Below, one piece after another: positions 12,873 through 22,985 of a stretch of 32,230 bases of DNA. The notes beneath the pieces were generated by a model, which had not been told where the DNA came from, made no database searches, and saw only the letters and a program-made list of their open reading frames with translations. The DNA is taken from NCBI GenBank assembly GCA_018883985.1, contig JAHLFA010000051.1, forward strand, positions 1 to 32,230, read 5' to 3'. How positions within the stretch are numbered: the first letter of the stretch is position 1; every line of letters begins with the position of its first letter. Made by a program: the position numbers and the translations under genes. The stretch is from Candidatus Ruminococcus intestinipullorum. GTDB lineage: Bacteria > Bacillota > Clostridia > Lachnospirales > Lachnospiraceae.

Positions 12873-13337
12873 TTATAAGTTACGGATTTTAAACTCTCTT
12901 TGTGCCTCCCTCCTTTGATCCTTTTTAGCAATGTCATCTCTTTTATCATACAATTTTTTACCTTTTGCCAACCCTATTTCCACTTTTACAAGACTCCCAC
13001 TAAAATACACCTTCAGTGGTACAACTGTATTCCCTTTTTCCTTCATTTTTCCAAATATTTTCTCAATCTCTTTTTTATGAAGCAAAAGTTTTCTAATTCT
13101 CAATGGGTCTTTATTAAATATATTACCTTTTTCATAAGGAGAAATGTGCATACCATATAAAAACATTTCTCCTTTTTCAATACGAATAAAAGCTTCTTTA
13201 ATACTGCATTGTCCCATACGTAACGATTTTACTTCTGTACCATGTAATACAATACCTGCTTCGTATTTTTCCAATATAAAATAATCATGATACGCCTTTT
13301 TATTATTTGCAATTAGTTTTTCTTCTACTTTTCCCAT
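12873..13337 (-). CDS. smpB: SsrA-binding protein SmpB
   Basis: This 154-residue RNA-binding protein escorts alanyl-tmRNA into the stalled ribosome and mimics the codon-anticodon arm in the decoding site. The OB-fold core shows the family landmarks: [47 protein letters not shown] and [10 protein letters not shown]. The basic C-terminal tail ([20 protein letters not shown]) is complete. Length is normal. The ATG follows AAGGTGAT and lies 14 bp after the rnr stop, so rnr and smpB are one operon. Its RNA partner ssrA is in the window but about 9 kb away and on the opposite strand. Confidence 0.98.
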
Positions 13338-13351
13338 GCAATCACCTTCTT

Positions 13352-15496
13352 CTAGAATTCGTCATCATATTCTTGCTCATCATTACAAAATTCAAAGTCA
13401 ATCGTACGTTGTAAATGGTCTGTTCCAATTACACGAATTCTTACACTTTGCCCTAATTTGTATACATTTCTTGTATGAGCTCCTATCAATTCATACTGCT
13501 CTTCCCAGTATTCATAATGGTCATCTCTCATATTGGTTACATGAACTAATCCTTCAATTGTATTTTCTAGTTCTACATAAGCTCCCCATTTTGTAATACC
13601 AGAAATTACACCATCGAACTCTTCACCAATTCTTTGCTGCATATATTCTACTTTTTTCAGCTTCAGCGTTTCTCTTTCTGCCTCCTCTGCTCGACGTTCC
13701 ATTTCACTCGACTGCATTGCTACTTCTGGCAATATTTTACCATAATGTGCAATTCGCTCCTCTGTCATACGTCCTCTTATATTCTCCTTAATAATTCTAT
13801 GAATTTGCAAATCTGGATATCTTCGTATTGGAGAAGTAAAGTGTGTATAATATTTAGCTGCTAATCCAAAATGTCCTGTATTTTCAGGTGTGTATTTCGC
13901 CTGTTTCATAGAACGCAGTGCCAAACGGCTAATCAATGCCTCTTCTGGGGTATCTTCTATTTTTTCTAATAACTTTTGTACTTCTTTCGGGCGTATTTCA
14001 TTTCCCATGTGAATGTGATACCCAAAATTATTAATAAATGTACTTAATTTTTTTATTTTTTCTTCATCTGGTGCTTCATGCGTACGATATAAAAATGGCA
14101 GCTCTCTCCAAAAATATTCTTCTGCTACAGTTTCATTTGCTGCTAGCATAAAATCTTCTATCATCTTTGTAGCTACATTTCTATCATAAGGCTTTAATTC
14201 CACAGGCTTCCCTTGTTCATCTAACAAAATTTTTGTTTCAGGAAAATCAAAATCGATGGAACCTCTTGCTTTTCTACGTTTTCTCAAGATACTAGATACA
14301 AAGGCCATCTTTTCAAACATAGGAACAAGCTCTTTATACTTCTTACACTCCTCCTCATCCTGCTCTTCTAAAATCTTGGCAACACTTGTATAAGACATTC
14401 TTTCATCTACCTTTATGACTGTTTCTGCAATCACATGCTCTATGATTTCCCCTTTTTGGTTGATTGTCATAATACAGCTTAATGCCAATCTATTTTCACC
14501 TTCATTTAAAGAACAAATTCCATTGGATAATTTGTGTGGAAGCATAGGGATTACACGGTCTGCCAGATAAACGCTTGTCCCCCTCTTTAGTGCTTCCCGA
14601 TCTAATGCACTTCTTTCCTGAACATAATTGCTTACATCAGCTATATGAACTCCTAGCCGATATCCTTCCTCTATCTCTTCTAGAGAAACAGCATCATCCA
14701 AATCTTTTGCATCCTCTCCGTCAATTGTTACCATTTGTAAATCTCGTAAATCAAGACGACCTGCCATATCCGCTTCACTTACCTCTTTGCCTACACGTTC
14801 TGCTTGATTTAGAACTCTCTCTGGAAACTCAACTGGTAAATCAAAAGACTTTACGATAGATAGAATATCCGTACCAGGGTCGTTTACATGTCCTATAATT
14901 TCAATGACTTTTCCCTCTGGCTTCATATTCTCTCCACCATAGGAAGTAAGCTCCACGATTACCTTATGCCCTGTCATAGCACCCTTTTCTTTTCCTGCTG
15001 GAATGTAAATATCTTTAAAAAATCTTTGATTATCTGGTCTTACAAATCCAAAATTTTTATTCTTTTCAAATAGACCAACTACTTTTGTCATTCCATGAGA
15101 AATTACACGAACAATTTTTCCCTCTTTTCGCTTCCCTTCCACGACTTTCGTAATGACAAATTCAACCTCATCTCCTTGAAAGGCCCCTCCTGTATTTTCT
15201 TCAGATATAAAAATATCCTCCTCTTCGCCTTCTTGTAATACAAATCCAAAGCCTCTTGCATTTGCCTGAAAAATCCCCTTCAGACGTTGTGCCTGTCCTT
15301 TCACATATTTTCCTTTTTTAGAAAGATAAATCTTTCCTTCAGCTTCCAATGCATCTAAAACACTCTTTAAATCGTCTCTTTGCTCCTTAGGAATTTGCAA
15401 TAGAACAGCAATCTCCTTCAACTTCATTGGAACATATAAATCATCGCATATAAAATCGTAAATTACCTTTTTCCTTTTTTCAAACATAGGATCCAT
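13352..15496 (-). CDS. rnr: Ribonuclease R
   Basis: This 714-residue processive 3'-5' exoribonuclease degrades structured RNA, including the defective mRNAs released by trans-translation. Order of domains: N-terminal winged helix, cold-shock domains ([17 protein letters not shown]), the RNB catalytic domain with the Asp cluster ([16 protein letters not shown]) and [12 protein letters not shown], the [18 protein letters not shown] motif, and a C-terminal S1 domain ([20 protein letters not shown]). The ATG at 15496 is preferred over a GTG at 15514 because AAGGTGA lies five to six bases upstream. It sits between secG and smpB, the common Firmicute order. A hairpin between secG and this gene may partly separate its transcription from secG. 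Confidence 0.97.
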
Positions 15497-15543
15497 GCTT
15501 TCACCTTCTTTCACCTTTCATCTCTTATTTTTCATAAAGAAAA

Positions 15544-15582: not shown

Positions 15583-15825
15583 TTAGTTAAATACGCCTAG
15601 ATTCAATACTAAAGCCAGTACAATAAATAAAATTGCCAAAAACTTCGTAGACTTCACAAGAGCTCCTTCCATAGAACGTCCCTTATTCTGTCCCCAATAC
15701 GAATCAGCAATACCACTGATTGTACCAAGCCCTGCAGATTTCCCCTCCTGCAGAAGAATAATTGCTGATAAAGCAATACAATCTATTACAAAAATAATCG
15801 TTAGAACAATTTTCAAGATCTCCAT
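15583..15825 (-). CDS. secG: Preprotein translocase subunit SecG
   Basis: This 80-residue membrane protein is the small accessory subunit of the SecYEG protein-export channel. Two hydrophobic segments (about 3-23 and 59-77) flank the conserved cytoplasmic loop with LLQEGKSAGLGTISG; the loop also carries the GRSMEGALVKSTKFLA turn common in Clostridia. Length is normal for the family. The ATG is preceded by GGGAGG. It stands upstream of rnr and smpB, and directly downstream of an enolase-like gene, echoing the eno-secG-rnr-smpB order of many Clostridia. Confidence 0.95.
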   Translation of the reverse strand: MEILKIVLTIIFVIDCIALSAIILLQEGKSAGLGTISGIADSYWGQNKGRSMEGALVKSTKFLAILFIVLALVLNLGVFN

Positions 15826-15892: not shown

Positions 15893-15941
15893 TTTAATTG
15901 GGGACGTAGTAAAATTCAATTTTACTACGTCCCCAATTAAA
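15893..15941 (-). terminator. Perfect 24-bp palindrome ending the enolase-like gene
   Basis: The arms 15893-15916 and 15918-15941 are perfectly complementary around base 15917. The core is GGGGACGTAGTAAAATT and its complement, bordered by A/T runs that give TTTAA on one side and a T-run on the other. The enolase-like stop codon (15937-15939) is inside one arm. It can act as a terminator in the minus direction, though the stem is unusually long and exact. Confidence 0.65.
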
Positions 15942-16803
15942 CATCTTCTATTCGCAAGAGCTGATTACAGCCTATTACACATCCACGCCTAAAGGGTACA
16001 TCAATTCGAATCATTGGTACCTGAAACGCAACTGCAAAATCTGCTAAAAGTGTTCCTTCTATTTCTTGATTCATATCAAAAATTATAGGTTCATATTCTC
16101 TTTTGTTTATATTTTGTGCTGCATCTGTTACCGTCCCCATGCTATATAAATGAAATGGTATCACAGTTCCCATCTTGACAAGTACCTGCTCTTCCAAGCG
16201 ATAGCCTGATAGCTCTATTGTCTGTTCTAATAATTTTATCATCTCTTGGACGTTAAAATTTTTTTGTGTATATTGTTCTTCCCAAATATGTCTAATTTTA
16301 GTACACATTCTTATACTTTCTCTAAAACTTTTTGGTTGTACAGGAATAATTTGAAATTCTTGTATATTTAAATGCTCCTTATATTCTCCTTTTTCTCCTG
16401 ATAATGTCATGATTGGAATTGGCATTTTTTTATTTCCTATCCCACCTAAATAACGATATACTGGGATTTTTTTTGCTGCTGCAGCTGTACGTACAACTGC
16501 CGATGAAATACAAAAAATCACATCAGTTGCTAGCCCCACACCTTTTTCTTTTGCAATCATTTTTCTTAAAATTTCATCAATCCCTTTTTGGTCGAAAATA
16601 TTCTTTCCAATAAGAATTTCTGCAATTTGCCCATTGATGCATTGTAGTACTAATTCTAAGTTTTTCATAGATTCGCTGGAAGGAACGGACGCCCTGCCCA
16701 CAACATGCTCCCCTGCAAGTACTTCCACCTCTATTGTGGAGTTACCTTCATAATCTAGTATTTCTCTTGCGTAAATATCCCGAATAGGTAAATACTGATA
16801 CAT
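15937..16803 (-). CDS. Reduced enolase-like protein, probably non-catalytic
   Basis: This 288-residue protein is clearly derived from enolase (normally about 430). The N-terminus DIYAREILDYEGNSTIEVEV matches the enolase AREILDSRGNPTVEVEV start, IQEF (147-150) matches the QEF motif, and the C-terminus NQLLRIED matches the enolase end. About 100-140 residues of the central barrel are missing. The active-site loop GASTG is replaced by SSESM (42-46), the GDEGG glutamate and the catalytic lysine region are absent, and SHRSGETED has become DMNQEIEGT (243-251). The frame is intact with a strong ribosome-binding site (GGAGGAAGG), so it is expressed in principle. It precedes secG, where true eno often stands. 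Catalysis looks impossible; a regulatory, scaffold or other role is unknown. Confidence 0.85.
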   Translation of the reverse strand: MYQYLPIRDIYAREILDYEGNSTIEVEVLAGEHVVGRASVPSSESMKNLELVLQCINGQIAEILIGKNIFDQKGIDEILRKMIAKEKGVGLATDVIFCISSAVVRTAAAAKKIPVYRYLGGIGNKKMPIPIMTLSGEKGEYKEHLNIQEFQIIPVQPKSFRESIRMCTKIRHIWEEQYTQKNFNVQEMIKLLEQTIELSGYRLEEQVLVKMGTVIPFHLYSMGTVTDAAQNINKREYEPIIFDMNQEIEGTLLADFAVAFQVPMIRIDVPFRRGCVIGCNQLLRIEDV

Positions 16804-16819: not shown

Positions 16820-16838
16820 ATAGAATGCTACATTCTAT
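16820..16838. repeat. Small inverted repeat before the enolase-like gene
   Basis: ATAGAATG-CTA-CATTCTAT is an eight-bp palindrome with a three-base centre, directly upstream of the ribosome-binding site of the enolase-like gene. It may be an operator or a leader hairpin; chance is possible. Confidence 0.35.
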
Positions 16839-16883
16839 TTGTAACTTTGAGTGTAGTATTTCCAATTATCCTATCTTCATGCG

Positions 16884-16912
16884 TTGACGAATGAGATTAT
16901 GTAGGTTACAAT
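16884..16912 (+). promoter_or_regulatory. Probable sigma-A promoter of the YitT-family gene
   Basis: TTGACG (16884-16889) and TACAAT (16907-16912) are 17 bp apart, 27 bp before the ATG at 16939. Confidence 0.7.
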
Positions 16913-16938
16913 TCGTGTATACGAAAGGGGAACTCAAA

Positions 16939-17781
16939 ATGAAAAGCAAATTTCAATATTTTTTACTTTTAACATTCAGCATTTTTATTACGGCAATTGG
17001 TACATATTTCTTTAAATTTCCAAATAATTTTACCTTTGGTGGTGTTACTGGTCTTGCCGTTTTAGTTGCAAATACTGGTTTTATGTCTGCTGGTGACTTT
17101 AACTTTATTATGAATATGATACTCTTAGCCATTGGGCTCATCATTTTGGGTAAAAAATTTGCTGCAAAAACAGCTTACTGTAGCATTTTGCTTTCCGTTA
17201 CATTATCGTTACTGGAACGCATCTACCCCTTAACTGAACCTTTGACGAATCAACCGATGTTAGAACTTTGCTTCGCCATTGCACTTCCATCACTTGGTTC
17301 TGCTATTTTATTTAACATTGGCTCTTCTAGTGGAGGTACTGATGTTATTGCCATGATTTTAAAAAAATATTCTAGTGTAAATATCGGGAGAGCTCTTCTG
17401 CTTACAGACTTATCAATTACAATTGTAGGTTGCTTTATGTTTGATATTGCAACTGGATTATATTCGTTTTTAGGATTAGCAATTCGCTCTTTTATGATTG
17501 ACAACTTCATAGAAAGTTTTAATCTGTCCAAATATTTTAATGTTGTTTGCGATAATCCTAAGCCAATCTGTGATTATATTGTAAATGATTTAAAAAGAAG
17601 TGCAACTGTATGCCATGCTCAAGGTGCTTTTTCTGGAAAGGACAAATATATTGTTTTTACTGCACTCAATCGTCCACAAGCTGTACGTTTACGTAATTTT
17701 ATTAAAGATGCAGAACCTGATGCATTTATTTTAATTTCAAATACAAGTGAAATTATTGGAAAAGGTTTTCATAATGTTTAA
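16939..17781 (+). CDS. YitT family membrane protein (DUF161/DUF2179)
   Basis: This 280-residue protein has an N-terminal membrane part with about five hydrophobic segments. Typical motifs are FKFPNNFTFGGVTGLAVL and SSSGGTDVIAMIL. A C-terminal soluble DUF2179 domain (about 190-280) ends in LRNFIKDAEPDAFILISNTSEIIGKGF. The family is widespread in Firmicutes; its transport function is not established. The ATG at 16939 is chosen for AAAGGGG eight bases upstream, and a good promoter ends 27 bp before it; an upstream in-frame start at 16891 would overlap that promoter. topB follows after 21 bp, probably in the same transcript. Confidence 0.9.
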   Translation: MKSKFQYFLLLTFSIFITAIGTYFFKFPNNFTFGGVTGLAVLVANTGFMSAGDFNFIMNMILLAIGLIILGKKFAAKTAYCSILLSVTLSLLERIYPLTEPLTNQPMLELCFAIALPSLGSAILFNIGSSSGGTDVIAMILKKYSSVNIGRALLLTDLSITIVGCFMFDIATGLYSFLGLAIRSFMIDNFIESFNLSKYFNVVCDNPKPICDYIVNDLKRSATVCHAQGAFSGKDKYIVFTALNRPQAVRLRNFIKDAEPDAFILISNTSEIIGKGFHNV

Positions 17782-17802: not shown

Positions 17803-19998
17803 ATGAAACATCTTGTAATTGCCGAAAAGCCTTCTGTAGGCAGAGATATAGCTCGTGTTTTAAAATGTACACAAAAACACAATACTTACATAGAGGGAAA
17901 TGATTATATTGTAACTTGGGCATTAGGTCATCTCGTAACACTTGCAGATCCTGAGCAGTACGGTGAACAATATAAAAATTGGGATTTAAACACTTTGCCA
18001 ATGCTTCCAAAACAATGGAAGCTTGTTGTAATCAAACAAACAGGACGCCAATTTCAAACAATAAAAGACTTGATATCTCGAAAAGATGTATCTGACATTA
18101 TTATTGCTACAGATGCTGGTCGTGAGGGAGAATTGGTTGCTCGTTGGATTTTAGAAAAATCAGGAAATAAAAAACCAGTTCAGCGACTTTGGGTGTCCTC
18201 TGTCACAGACAAGGCTCTTAAAGATGGTTTCTCAAATTTAAAACCAGGAAAAAACTATCTACCTCTTTATCACGCTGCTGTTGTACGTGCCAAATCCGAT
18301 TGGCTTGTAGGAATCAATGCTTCTCGGGCATTGACATGCAAATATAATGCACAGCTTTCCTGTGGGCGTGTACAGACTCCAACTCTTGCTATGATTGCAG
18401 CACGAGAAAATGAAATCAAGCAATTTGTTCCTAAATCTTTCTATGGACTACAACTTGTAGCTGGAAATATTACTTTTACTTGGAAAGATACCTCTTCTGG
18501 TTCCTCACAAACGTTCCATAAAGAAAAGATTGAGCATATAAAGTCATCTATCTCAGGCATTGATTCATTTCAGATTACAACTGTAGAAAAAAAGGCGAAA
18601 AAATCTTTCTCATCTGGACTATATGATTTAACTACATTACAAAGAGAGGCAAATCAACGCTTTGGTTTTTCTGCAAAAGAAACTTTGACTATTATGCAAA
18701 AACTTTACGAAACCTATAAAGTGCTGACATATCCACGAACAGACTCTCGCTATCTTACACAAGATATCGTCCCTACTTTAAAAGAAAGACTAAAAGCCTG
18801 TGCTGTTGGACCTTACAGTAAAATTGCTGGACGCCTTTCCATGCAGACAATCAAGGCTCATCCTTCGTTTGTTAATAATCAAAAGGTATCTGACCATCAT
18901 GCAATTATTCCTACAGAACAGTATGTTCCATTGAGTGAAATGAGCAATGAAGAACGAAAAATTTATGATATGGTCATTCGTAGATTTTTAGCCGTTTTAT
19001 CCCCAGCTTGTGAATACGAAGAAACTTTGATTCATGGTTCTATAAATCAAGAAACTTTTTGTGCAAAAGGAAGTATCATTCGTTCCTTAGGATGGAGGGA
19101 AGTTTATGATGGAACATTTCACGATGACGATACTGAGAATGAAAATACCATACAACAGCAAACACTTCCCGATATAAAAGAGGGGGCTAACCTTTCTATC
19201 AAAACTATTAAAATAACAGAAGGGAAAACAAAACCTCCTGCTTATTTTACAGAAGGTACTTTAATTGCTGCTATGGAGAACCCTACAAAATATTTACAAC
19301 ACAAGGATAAGTCTATAATCAAAACCTTGGGTGAAACTGGTGGTATTGGAACAGTTGCTACAAGAGCTGACATCATAGAAAAACTGCTCCATAGCTTTCT
19401 CATGGAAAAGAAAGGGAATGAAATCCATATTACTTCTAAGGGAAAACAGTTACTTTCTCTTGTTCCACATGATTTAAAAAGCCCTGAACTTACAGCAATG
19501 TGGGAAGTGCGTTTACAAGCAATTGCACAAGGAAAAGAATCCGATAAAGGATTTATGAAAGAAATTGAAAACTATACTAAAAATCTGATTGAAGAAATTA
19601 AAACTGCTGATGGTACATTTCGCCATGATAATATGACACGAACTAAATGTCCTCAATGTGGAAAATTTCTTCTAGAAGTAAATGGAAAGCACGGAAAACT
19701 TCTTGTTTGTCAGGATAGAGAATGTGGATATAGGGAAACTATTTCCCGACATACAAATGCTCGTTGTCCAGTTTGCCATAAAAAGATGGACTTAGTTGGT
19801 AAAGGAGATGGTCAACGTTTCGTTTGTACTTGTGGTCATAAAGAAAAGTTAAGTGCTTTTGAAGAACGAAAAAAAAGAGAAGGCAAAGGTGCAAGTAAAA
19901 AGGATGTAAATAATTACCTAAAGAAACAAGCTAAACAGGCAAATGAACCTATTAATAATGCTTTTGCAGAAGCCTTCTCTAAATTAAATTTAAATTAG
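17803..19998 (+). CDS. topB: DNA topoisomerase III (type IA)
   Basis: This 731-residue enzyme cuts one DNA strand to relax or decatenate DNA. The N-terminal TOPRIM domain shows LVIAEKPSVGRDIARVL and ATDAGREGELVAR (Asp104). The catalytic tyrosine is in LTYPRTDSRYL (Tyr310) with Arg312 beside it, and the conserved GGIGTVATRADIIEKL stretch follows near residue 520. The C-terminus carries zinc-ribbon-like cysteines (CPQCG, CQDRECGY, CPVCHKK, CTCGHKE) after the catalytic core. The ATG follows AAAGGAG. It lies 21 bp behind the YitT gene. Its stop overlaps by 3 bp the stop of the convergent cell-wall hydrolase gene, leaving no room for a separate terminator. Confidence 0.95.
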   Translation: MKHLVIAEKPSVGRDIARVLKCTQKHNTYIEGNDYIVTWALGHLVTLADPEQYGEQYKNWDLNTLPMLPKQWKLVVIKQTGRQFQTIKDLISRKDVSDIIIATDAGREGELVARWILEKSGNKKPVQRLWVSSVTDKALKDGFSNLKPGKNYLPLYHAAVVRAKSDWLVGINASRALTCKYNAQLSCGRVQTPTLAMIAARENEIKQFVPKSFYGLQLVAGNITFTWKDTSSGSSQTFHKEKIEHIKSSISGIDSFQITTVEKKAKKSFSSGLYDLTTLQREANQRFGFSAKETLTIMQKLYETYKVLTYPRTDSRYLTQDIVPTLKERLKACAVGPYSKIAGRLSMQTIKAHPSFVNNQKVSDHHAIIPTEQYVPLSEMSNEERKIYDMVIRRFLAVLSPACEYEETLIHGSINQETFCAKGSIIRSLGWREVYDGTFHDDDTENENTIQQQTLPDIKEGANLSIKTIKITEGKTKPPAYFTEGTLIAAMENPTKYLQHKDKSIIKTLGETGGIGTVATRADIIEKLLHSFLMEKKGNEIHITSKGKQLLSLVPHDLKSPELTAMWEVRLQAIAQGKESDKGFMKEIENYTKNLIEEIKTADGTFRHDNMTRTKCPQCGKFLLEVNGKHGKLLVCQDRECGYRETISRHTNARCPVCHKKMDLVGKGDGQRFVCTCGHKEKLSAFEERKKREGKGASKKDVNNYLKKQAKQANEPINNAFAEAFSKLNLN

Positions 19999-21459: not shown

Positions 21460-22985
21460 CTAATCTCGATTGCTTAATATCCACAAAGGATCGTATCTAA
21501 GAATAAATATTAACGCTGTACATCCAGAAAGAATCGTTAATAGAAGTCCAATTCCTATCATTTCCAACATTACAACTAAATTTACCCCAGAAGAAATCGT
21601 ACTTACATATTCGACCCCTCTTGTCTCATTTCTCTCTTGTGGAGGCATTTCCATACTACGTCCAAATCGTTCTTCCTGTCCTAAAGTTTCTGAATTCATA
21701 CTTTCTATCTGCTGCTCTAAGAGCTGATTTGTAATTGGAACAGACGATACAGTTCCTACTCCCATACCTATGAACAAGGCACAAAATGTCACACATAATA
21801 CCTCTGTTAAAAATTGAATTACAATTTTCCACTTCTTCATTCCAATCGCAGCAAGTACACCAATCTCATACTTTCTTTCTCGTATGGAAAAAATATGCAA
21901 AACAATCAAAATTGCTGCTCCTATTGATAAAATCACAATTAAAAAATATCCTGCGTATTGACTTAAATTTTCAAGTGGTCTAAGGCTTGCTTCATAAGTT
22001 GTAACATCCCCAGAGGAAATCGTATACGTATCTGCTAAGCCAAGCTCTCTTGCTTCATCTTCAAACGTTTCAAACATTGCAACGGAATCAAAAGAATATG
22101 TTCCTTGAATCATAGAACGTATGGCTGTTGTAGAATCGCTCGCTTCTTCAGATTGTGCTAATATTTCTTGTAATGTCTGATTACTTACATAAATCTGATT
22201 TGCACTATCTGCACCTGTAGAAAATCCACTCATCATATTCATCATAGAGTCAGCTGCTGCTTCCTTCTCATAAATTCCACAAATCGTTAATTCATATACT
22301 TCGTCCTCTGCATTTGGATTGGAAAGTTGAATTGTATCTCCAACAGAAAGATCATTATAAGAAGCCAATTCAGAGTTAATCACCACTGTCATATCAGCTG
22401 TCGCTTGTGTAAACATCTGCCCATCTACAATCGAACTTGTTCCATTGATAAAATCTGTCATAGCAGCATCTGAACTATACCCTATAACTGTAAATTCTCC
22501 CTGTACACCCATTCTGCCCTTTGACATATCTGGTGTTTCTTCCATTCCACCAGGTTCTCCAGGCTGTGGTTGTTGTTCTTGTTGAACTTGTTCTTCCTGT
22601 GTACTTCCTGTGTACTTCCTGTCATATCAACTGGCTCTATAGAATCTCCATTAAATGATGCCGAACGTGTATAATAAAAGTCAGATACACTTTCACATTG
22701 TGCATATGTTTCCAAGTCTTCTAAAGAAAGTTCTTGAATTTCCTCAAGTCCTGCTTTCCTTTCTTCTCGTTCGCCCTTTTCCTTCATCATAGATTCCCTA
22801 TTAAAGCTAATTTGTGCGGTAATCTTTAAATCCTCCATTGCCTCCTCTTTCGCTGTATCAGAAGCTTCTCGAATGGATAAGGAAATACATGCTGATAAAG
22901 CAATCAGAAATACAATCAGCCCCATTAAAAAGTTTCGTCCTTTCGACCTAAAAACACTTCGAATAGCATTTTTTAAAATATACAT
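21460..22985 (-). pseudogene. FtsX-type ABC permease, frameshifted by an 11-bp tandem duplication
   Basis: Two overlapping minus-strand frames make up one permease. The first runs from the ATG at 22985 and carries the N-terminal membrane segment (FRSKGRNFLMGLIVFLIALS) and start of the extracytoplasmic domain. The second, ending at 21460, carries the rest with three C-terminal hydrophobic segments and the RERKYEIGVLAAIGMKK motif. The break is at an exact 11-bp tandem duplication (22594-22615). Removing one copy joins the frames through VDMTGSTQEEQVQQEQQ and gives exactly 504 residues plus stop (1,515 bp). The break lies in a low-complexity extracellular loop. The start has AAGGAGG upstream. 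Without the repair, translation ends early. It could be a recent mutation, a phase-variable switch, or a sequencing artefact. Confidence 0.88.
22594..22622. repeat. 11-bp tandem repeat, 2.6 copies
   Basis: TTCCTGTGTAC occurs at 22594-22604 and 22605-22615, followed by a partial third copy TTCCTGT at 22616-22622. Gain or loss of one 11-bp unit shifts the reading frame of the permease; with one unit less the gene is intact. Confidence 0.95.

What the first reader, a model, noticed from the sequence alone, without database searches (positions are those of the whole stretch)
15937..16803. Intact but catalytically stripped enolase paralogue at the eno-secG locus
The 288-residue product keeps the enolase N-terminus, the QEF motif and the C-terminal NQLLRIED, but lacks about 100-140 residues of the barrel. 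It has also lost the GASTG loop, GDEGG, the catalytic Lys region and SHRSGETED. There is no frameshift or internal stop, and it has a strong ribosome-binding site and a well-formed terminator. It sits directly upstream of secG-rnr-smpB, where functional eno often stands in Clostridia. An open frame after such heavy loss suggests selection for a non-glycolytic role, for example RNA-degradosome contact, enolase regulation or assembly.
Basis: partly seen in the sequence, partly recalled or inferred. Interest (0 to 1): 0.75.

Follow-up and report, generated by a model that had tools for sequence, protein, structure and literature searches.

The report
Ancestral enolase turned non-catalytic protein
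In a genus of gut-type bacteria, the original copy of a near-universal sugar-burning enzyme has repeatedly lost its active site while staying an open, selected gene beside a normal second copy, which points to a non-enzymatic job.

Summary
ORF 15937-16803 (minus strand) encodes 288 residues of enolase with 132 residues cut out (loop 1, GDEGG loop, barrel strands 4-5) and 1-2 of 11 active-site residues left. A complete enolase (Eno1) lies elsewhere in the genome. The window gene is the syntenic ancestral eno: other genera keep an intact eno at this locus, in seven genomes as the only enolase found. Of 37 same-genus genomes 36 carry this "eno2": 14 intact, 22 stripped (0-9 of 11 residues). No eno2 frame in the genus was seen broken. 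Trees need at least 6 (gene) or 8 (locus) intact/stripped changes. Three stripped groups evolve at omega 0.15-0.22 (intact eno2 0.065, Eno1 0.04-0.07), 18 of 22 stripped loci keep the promoter boxes, and active-site residues are lost (26% kept) while strands 1-3, the last helix and part of the octamer contact are kept. So it is most likely a selected pseudoenzyme under relaxed constraint. Its job is inferred: probably a structural or regulatory partner of Eno1. The closest report is truncated or lost enolase in Butyrivibrio, read there as gene loss.

The parts
15937..16803 (-). stripped enolase eno2, 288 aa (P0001)
16672..16791 (-). residues 5-44: retained N-terminal strands 1-3 (dimer elements in S. 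aureus enolase, PMC4667285)
16669..16680 (-). junction where catalytic loop 1 (17 residues, 46-62 of the intact orthologue) is missing
16435..16458 (-). residues 116-123 YRYLGGIG, retained; matches the centre of the octamer contact in S. aureus enolase
16249..16260 (-). junction where the GDEGG loop (15 residues, 202-216) is missing
16168..16185 (-). junction where 97 residues (243-339; end of strand 3 to just before strand 6, including the three Mg-ligand positions) are missing
15940..15969 (-). residues 279-288 CNQLLRIEDV, retained C-terminal helix
16813..16819 (-). Shine-Dalgarno AAGGAGG
16854..16863 (-). conserved promoter-like box GGAAATACTA
16875..16888 (-). conserved box GTCAACGCATGAAG, 11 bp before the previous box; overlaps the -35 of the divergent yitT promoter-like site
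16906..16914 (-). conserved GAATTGTAA (holds the complement of the yitT -10 TACAAT)
15896..15938 (.).
16891..17781 (+). divergent neighbour, yitT-like membrane protein (name from recall; conserved neighbour of eno2)
17803..19998 (+). topB-like topoisomerase III (name from recall), conserved neighbour
15583..15825 (-). secG (name from recall), downstream
13352..15514 (-). rnr (RNase R; name from recall), downstream
12873..13337 (-). smpB (name from recall), downstream

Best explanation
The gene is the ancestral eno of the eno-secG-rnr-smpB locus. A second, complete enolase (Eno1) took over glycolysis, which freed this copy. It then lost its active site and shrank by excision of catalytic loops and of barrel strands 4-5, while selection kept its reading frame, its promoter region, its N-terminal domain, its outer barrel elements and its C-terminal helix. 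It is therefore a pseudoenzyme (shown at the level of sequence evolution for the family, made likely for the window gene). Most likely (inferred, not shown) it works by contact: it folds into a reduced enolase shape that docks through the old subunit surfaces, first of all onto Eno1, and tunes Eno1's assembly, stability or activity, or ties Eno1 to another partner.
For: Second complete enolase in the same genome, 11/11 residues. Intact eno (11/11 in 15 of 15 aligned rows) at the same locus in other genera, the sole enolase found in 7 of 16 other-genus genomes searched. 22 of the 36 same-genus genomes with eno2 are stripped; Eno1 was found in 21 of these 22, and 38 of 38 Eno1 rows are 11/11. 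No eno2 frame in the genus was seen broken (the end of G011's lies off its contig). Omega 0.15-0.22 in three stripped groups; among the four shortest forms all six pairs reject neutrality, p 0.014 to 2.4e-6. For the window gene, neutral simulation to the observed divergence gave 0 stop-free runs of 400, or 1 of 400 if 60% of the change is its own. The promoter box pair was found in 31 of 37 eno2 loci, 18 of 22 stripped and 13 of 15 intact. Retention of conserved columns in 19 stripped rows: active site 0.26, rest 0.51, strands 1-3 0.73, C-terminal helix 0.78, seven conserved octamer-contact residues 0.96. The same barrel part is missing in the window gene, G013, G005/G026, G008 and the G019 group, ending at residues 333-346 just before strand 6.
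Against: No binding, expression or structural data; the single-sequence AlphaFold model is useless (pLDDT 33.9). Of the octamer's hydrogen-bonding residues, N389 is kept in only 16% of stripped rows though conserved in 89% of intact ones, and N140, K142, D355, E358 and K362 are kept in 0-47% (these five are also variable in intact rows, 25-54%). Helix 5, a dimer element, is no better kept than the rest (0.51). With gaps ignored and one row per lineage the C-terminal helix is not significant (p 0.18). The retained glycines and leucines may simply be fold core. I saw the conserved segments before I tested them. Measured against synonymous divergence of other genes, dN of stripped copies is a larger fraction (0.25-0.63 against yitT/topB, up to about 0.95 against Eno1), so constraint is weak. 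The window gene's own omega cannot be measured.
Confidence: 0.4

Rival explanations
1. Slow decay: eno2 is a redundant gene on its way out, with weak residual selection (for example against toxic misfolding or poisoning of Eno1), as enolase loss was read in Butyrivibrio.
For: Strong rate increase (window gene 44% identical to G011 and G018, while Eno1 is 76-79% and yitT 85-86%); repeated shrinkage; stripping only seen where Eno1 exists, G019 (85% complete) being undecided. dN of stripped pairs divided by dS of yitT/topB is 0.25-0.63 (G030/G014b, G002/G004) and by dS of Eno1 up to about 0.95 (G002/G004, G036/G027; Eno1's dS may be lowered by codon bias, inference). Gene-loss view in PMC6118326 and PMC6912079 (passages read).
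Against: No broken eno2 frame among the 36 genomes; a 14-member stripped clade (96/91 support) has kept open frames through long divergence; omega by its own dS is well under 1, and promoter boxes are kept.
Confidence: 0.29
2. Degradosome or RNA-decay scaffold: eno2 keeps only the moonlighting role of enolase (for example RNase Y contact) while Eno1 does the chemistry.
For: Enolase is part of the degradosome-like network of B. subtilis and its RNase Y binding is tuned by the small protein SR7P (PMC8152036, passages). The ancestral locus lies beside rnr.
Against: No RNase-contact surface was tested. Among the 36 other same-genus loci, with flanks of differing length, only G001's showed secG and rnr, while yitT stands beside 33 of 37 copies.
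Confidence: 0.15
3. New small-molecule binding or another new function of the reduced fold, unrelated to enolase partners.
For: The stripped lineages differ widely in the former barrel mouth.
Against: I noticed no shared new motif across lineages in the alignment (read by eye, no test).
Confidence: 0.08
4. Assembly or binning artefact.
For: The window's genome is an 83.5% complete draft of 137 contigs.
Against: Stripped eno2 also in a single-contig genome (G028) and in genomes of 98-100% completeness (G001, G002, G020); 22 genomes in all.
Confidence: 0.02

Closest known systems
Truncated and lost enolase in rumen Butyrivibrio (PMC6118326, PMC6912079)
   Same: Enolase genes found truncated in some strains; PMC6118326 also names uncharacterized Lachnospiraceae among enolase-negative strains.
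   Different: There the truncated or missing gene is described as gene loss with a proposed methylglyoxal bypass; here an intact Eno1 is present, frames are open, and omega and promoter boxes point to selection. Those truncated genes were not compared here.
Catalytic enolase (phosphopyruvate hydratase, TIGR01060; solved examples 3uj2, 4a3r)
   Same: Homologous over about residues 3-184 and 199-287.
   Different: 1-2 of 11 active-site residues, 132 residues missing, NCBIfam equivalog cut-off not reached.
Pseudoenzyme paralogues that regulate an active sister (general class, from recall)
   Same: Dead copy kept beside a live one.
   Different: No paper on a bacterial pseudoenolase was seen in the listings (listings are capped; one search had 11,830 papers, 15 listed).
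SR7P, a small protein that binds B. subtilis enolase (PMC8152036)
   Same: A non-catalytic protein that tunes enolase's side role.
   Different: SR7P is 39 aa; eno2 is a reduced enolase.

Membership tests
Catalytic enolase | Active-site set (loop-1 Ser, His, two Glu, Asp/Glu/Asp Mg ligands, Lys, His-Arg, Lys; set from recall and PMC4667285) | tested here: not met
   2 of 11 or 1 of 11
Catalytic enolase | Complete barrel | tested here: not met
   residues 243-339 absent
Catalytic enolase | Equivalog score | tested here: not met
   131.8 of 300 bits
Enolase by descent | Sequence homology and shared locus | tested here: met
Pseudoenzyme | Loss of catalytic residues with an active paralogue present | tested here: met
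   (activity of Eno1 inferred from its residues)
Pseudoenzyme | Protein-level selection after the loss | tested here: met
   omega 0.15-0.22 in three stripped groups; for the window gene only the frame simulation and codon-position counts
Pseudoenzyme | Defined non-catalytic function | not testable with these tools
   no binding or phenotype data
Decaying pseudogene | Broken frames or omega near 1 | tested here: not met
   but see the higher ratios against other genes' dS
Enolase hetero-oligomer subunit | Contact residues kept | tested here: inconclusive
   strands 1-3, C-terminal helix, YLGG and LT kept; N389 and other H-bond residues lost

The most novel reading that the evidence does not exclude
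In these bacteria the working enolase is a mixed assembly: catalytic Eno1 subunits plus a stripped Eno2 subunit that occupies the old dimer or octamer contact and controls the enzyme's size, stability or partners. The same conversion happened several times because any lineage with two enolases can turn one into a regulator.
Probability: 0.28. Interest if true: 0.78.

Novelty: new variant of a known kind. Interest (0 to 1): 0.61.

Why it matters
Enolase is nearly universal and has side roles that are hard to separate from glycolysis by deletion. Here nature has separated the copies: the dead one could be removed without touching the catalytic one. A graded series in one genus, from 11/11 to 0/11 active-site residues and from about 440 to about 220 residues, in parallel lineages, lets one ask which part of enolase is needed for a non-glycolytic job and how pseudoenzymes arise.

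Tried and rejected
AlphaFold of the window protein alone gave pLDDT 33.9, no use, so no fold search was run. The search for related loci in genome contigs returned one distant enolase only. IQ-TREE under GY2K printed no omega and GY1K failed; GY worked. Omega for groups with tree length over 10 (0.039 for the set with the window gene, 0.029 for the same without it, 0.043 for G005/G026/G008/G028) is saturated and not used. YN00 failed for many pairs. A FastTree eno tree joined nearly all stripped copies except G029; the mixture-model tree split them into more groups, so I took the first as partly long-branch attraction. G021's second copy is not at this locus and is another enolase-like type: dropped from all eno2 counts. 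G025, G031 and G032 were dropped as near-copies of G019. From the 20 other-genus loci, G292 and G334 (split frames) were left out of alignments, G453 and G150 (intact) out of the intact reference set, and G076, G069 and G239 gave no row. The idea that eno2 belongs to a secG operon in the genus was rejected: the conserved neighbour is yitT. No shuffled control was run for the promoter boxes. On rechecking I lowered the best explanation from 0.42 to 0.40 and the novel case from 0.30 to 0.28, and raised slow decay from 0.27 to 0.29, because dN against Eno1's dS reaches about 0.95.

Full report
OBSERVATION. The ORF at 15937-16803 on the minus strand encodes 288 residues without an internal stop. 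It is enolase by Pfam (Enolase_N 4.2e-21, Enolase_C 5.7e-11), by TIGR01060 below cut-off and by comparison with solved enolases (about residues 3-184 and 199-287). Of 11 active-site residues 2 remain in one alignment and 1 in another. Against the intact orthologue of genome G098 it lacks residues 46-62, 202-216, 243-339 and 367-369: loop 1, the GDEGG loop, and the barrel from the end of strand 3 to just before strand 6. The strand assignment follows established enolase structure (recall).

GENOME CONTEXT. The window's genome (83.5% complete, 137 contigs) also holds a complete enolase on contig 71 with all 11 residues, called Eno1 here. The window copy (eno2) lies between yitT-topB (divergent) and secG-rnr-smpB (gene names from recall).

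ORIGIN. I picked 20 matches by hand from a draw of 397 genomes of the family (310 had a match) and fetched the loci. Eight (G098, G413, G164, G366, G382, G201, G322, G117) have yitT on one side and secG-rnr on the other side of eno, some with a few kilobases between; others show one side only, or end at contig ends. Of the 20, 15 gave full-length rows and all 15 have 11/11 residues; G334 and G292 have split frames, G076, G069 and G239 gave no row. In 7 of 16 other-genus genomes searched with PF00113 (G117, G382, G223, G322, G366, G164, G381) this eno is the only enolase found. So eno2 is the ancestral glycolytic gene of this locus. In the genus, G035 likewise has one enolase, eno2, with 11/11 residues.

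DISTRIBUTION. Of 37 same-genus genomes (the window's plus 36), 36 carry eno2; G021 does not. There are 37 eno2 copies (G014 has two); 33 stand beside yitT (at G036 the contig ends). Fourteen genomes have intact eno2 (15 copies, 11/11); 22 are stripped, with 0-9 residues left and 218-439 aa from the conserved start. No frame was seen broken; G011's end lies off its contig. Eno1 was found in 21 of the 22 stripped genomes; the exception, G019, is 85% complete. All 38 Eno1 rows taken (35 in the genus, 3 outside) have 11/11. Stripped eno2 occurs in a single-contig genome (G028), so it is not a draft artefact.

PARALLEL STRIPPING. A careful tree of yitT+topB (37 rows) needs 8 changes between intact and stripped; 0% of 200 bootstrap trees need one, and a single stripped clade is rejected (AU p 9.7e-45; I had seen a quick tree first, and seven rows have under half of the columns). 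Because genes can recombine away from their neighbours I also built the eno2 tree with a mixture model (43 rows): 6 changes (5-7 in bootstraps), though starred branches alone force only 2. It holds one old stripped clade of 14 (96/91), G030 as sister of an intact copy (97/92), and unresolved long branches, among them the window gene (2.82, the longest). On the locus tree the window gene groups with G011 and G018, whose eno2 is intact (100/98). The same barrel part is missing in the window gene, G013, G005/G026, G008 and the G019 group, with 3' ends at 333-346; three of these belong to the clade of 14 but have different 5' ends. Loop 1 is shortened in 9 of the 20 stripped rows listed.

SELECTION. 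Omega is 0.197 (the four 218-221-aa forms), 0.151 (G002, G004, G009, G020, G024) and 0.223 (G013, G027, G036, G023), against 0.065 for eight intact eno2 and 0.036-0.067 for three Eno1 sets. In the four short forms each of the six pairs rejects neutrality (p 0.014 to 2.4e-6). The window gene has no close relative of its own kind and its dS is saturated, so its omega is unknown. Neutral simulation from the G018 copy gave a mean of 9.4 stops and 0 of 400 stop-free runs (5.8 stops and 1 of 400 if 60% of the change is its own). Where G011 and G018 agree, it differs at 82 of 210 first and 72 of 243 second codon positions against 8 of 14 fourfold sites. Against this: dN of stripped pairs is 0.25-0.63 of the synonymous divergence of yitT/topB and up to about 0.95 of that of Eno1 (G002/G004, G036/G027), so constraint is clearly relaxed.

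PROMOTER. Upstream of eno2 lie GAATTGTAA, GTCAACGCATTAAG and, 11-12 bp on, GGRRATAMTA. The last two were found in 31 of 37 loci (up to 3 mismatches in the first, 1 in the second): 18 of 22 stripped and 13 of 15 intact. Of the six without, five had 260 bp searched and G036 only 68. They are present in the window gene (one mismatch) and in G098, G413 and G274, not clearly in G164, outside the genus. No shuffled control was run. The first two boxes overlap the divergent yitT promoter-like site, which alone could keep them; the third lies on the eno2 side only.

WHAT IS KEPT. Among columns conserved at 90% or more in 28 intact rows, 19 stripped rows (of 22) keep the active site (12 residues) at 0.26, unassigned columns at 0.51 (n=154), strands 1-3 at 0.73 (n=24), the C-terminal helix at 0.78 (n=10) and seven octamer-contact residues at 0.96; one row for each of 11 lineages gives 0.28, 0.51, 0.77, 0.76 and 0.94. 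With gaps ignored: 0.38, 0.63, 0.77, 0.76 (p 0.18) and 0.94. Contact assignments come from S. aureus enolase (PMC4667285, passages read): strands 1-3, helices 5 and 12 in the dimer; Leu136-Phe139, Leu350, Thr351 and others in the octamer. That my C-terminal segment is its helix 12 and my 'a5' its helix 5 is my inference. Against: helix 5 is at 0.51, and the octamer's hydrogen-bonding residues are mostly lost (N389 0.16 against 0.89 in intact rows).

MECHANISM. Shown: ancestral locus, complete second enolase, loss of catalytic residues, more than one event, open frames, omega under 1 in three groups, conserved promoter boxes. Inferred: that the protein is made, folds and works by contact, most likely with Eno1.

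LITERATURE. The listings of searches (open papers only, listings capped) showed no bacterial pseudoenolase. The nearest are PMC6118326 and PMC6912079 (passages read): many Butyrivibrio lack enolase and some have truncated genes, read as gene loss. PMC8152036 (passages) reviews enolase's RNase Y role and its tuning by a small protein. PMC6863902 and PMC4450660 were searched for contact residues without use (passages).

VERDICT. Observation confirmed; the selection reading is supported for the family and likely for the window gene; the precise function is open.

Noticed in passing
window 15896-15938 and about 30 other places in G000: A 43-bp near-perfect palindrome (GGGGACGTAGTAAAATT arm) is dispersed through the genome, about 31 sites by my count; here it supplies part of the eno2 stop codon.
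   Followed up: partly
G021:C3:34209, G017:C47:12675, G023:C11:90007, G001:C5:1024718; G274:C93:42101, G095:C1:1223034 and 1224338: What looks like a third, divergent enolase-like type of about 425-450 aa; only G021's copy was aligned (8 of 11 active-site residues). Two stand close together in G095.
   Followed up: no
G292:C1:2648368 and 2562963: In a single-contig genome the N-terminal part of eno lies at the yitT locus and the C-terminal part about 85 kb away; PF00113 found no other copy. Perhaps an inserted element or inversion.
   Followed up: no
L111 4489-5756 (G334): The eno of the secG-rnr-smpB locus lies in two overlapping frames and no other enolase was found (88% complete draft): a sequencing error or a broken sole enolase.
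   Followed up: no
L038 4146-4253 and 6306-7574 (G001): A 36-residue fragment of the eno2 start stands on the yitT side, 2 kb before the full stripped copy.
   Followed up: no
window 21460-22985: An FtsX-like permease (name from recall) seems split into two overlapping frames (21460-22545 and 22482-22985), perhaps a frameshift.
   Followed up: no
window 16821-16837: A 17-bp palindrome TAGAATGTAGCATTCTA just before the Shine-Dalgarno of eno2, not seen in the upstream stretches of G011 and G018.
   Followed up: partly
87 of 397 genomes of the family draw had no match to the window protein at 1e-5; some may lack enolase, as reported for Butyrivibrio.
   Followed up: no
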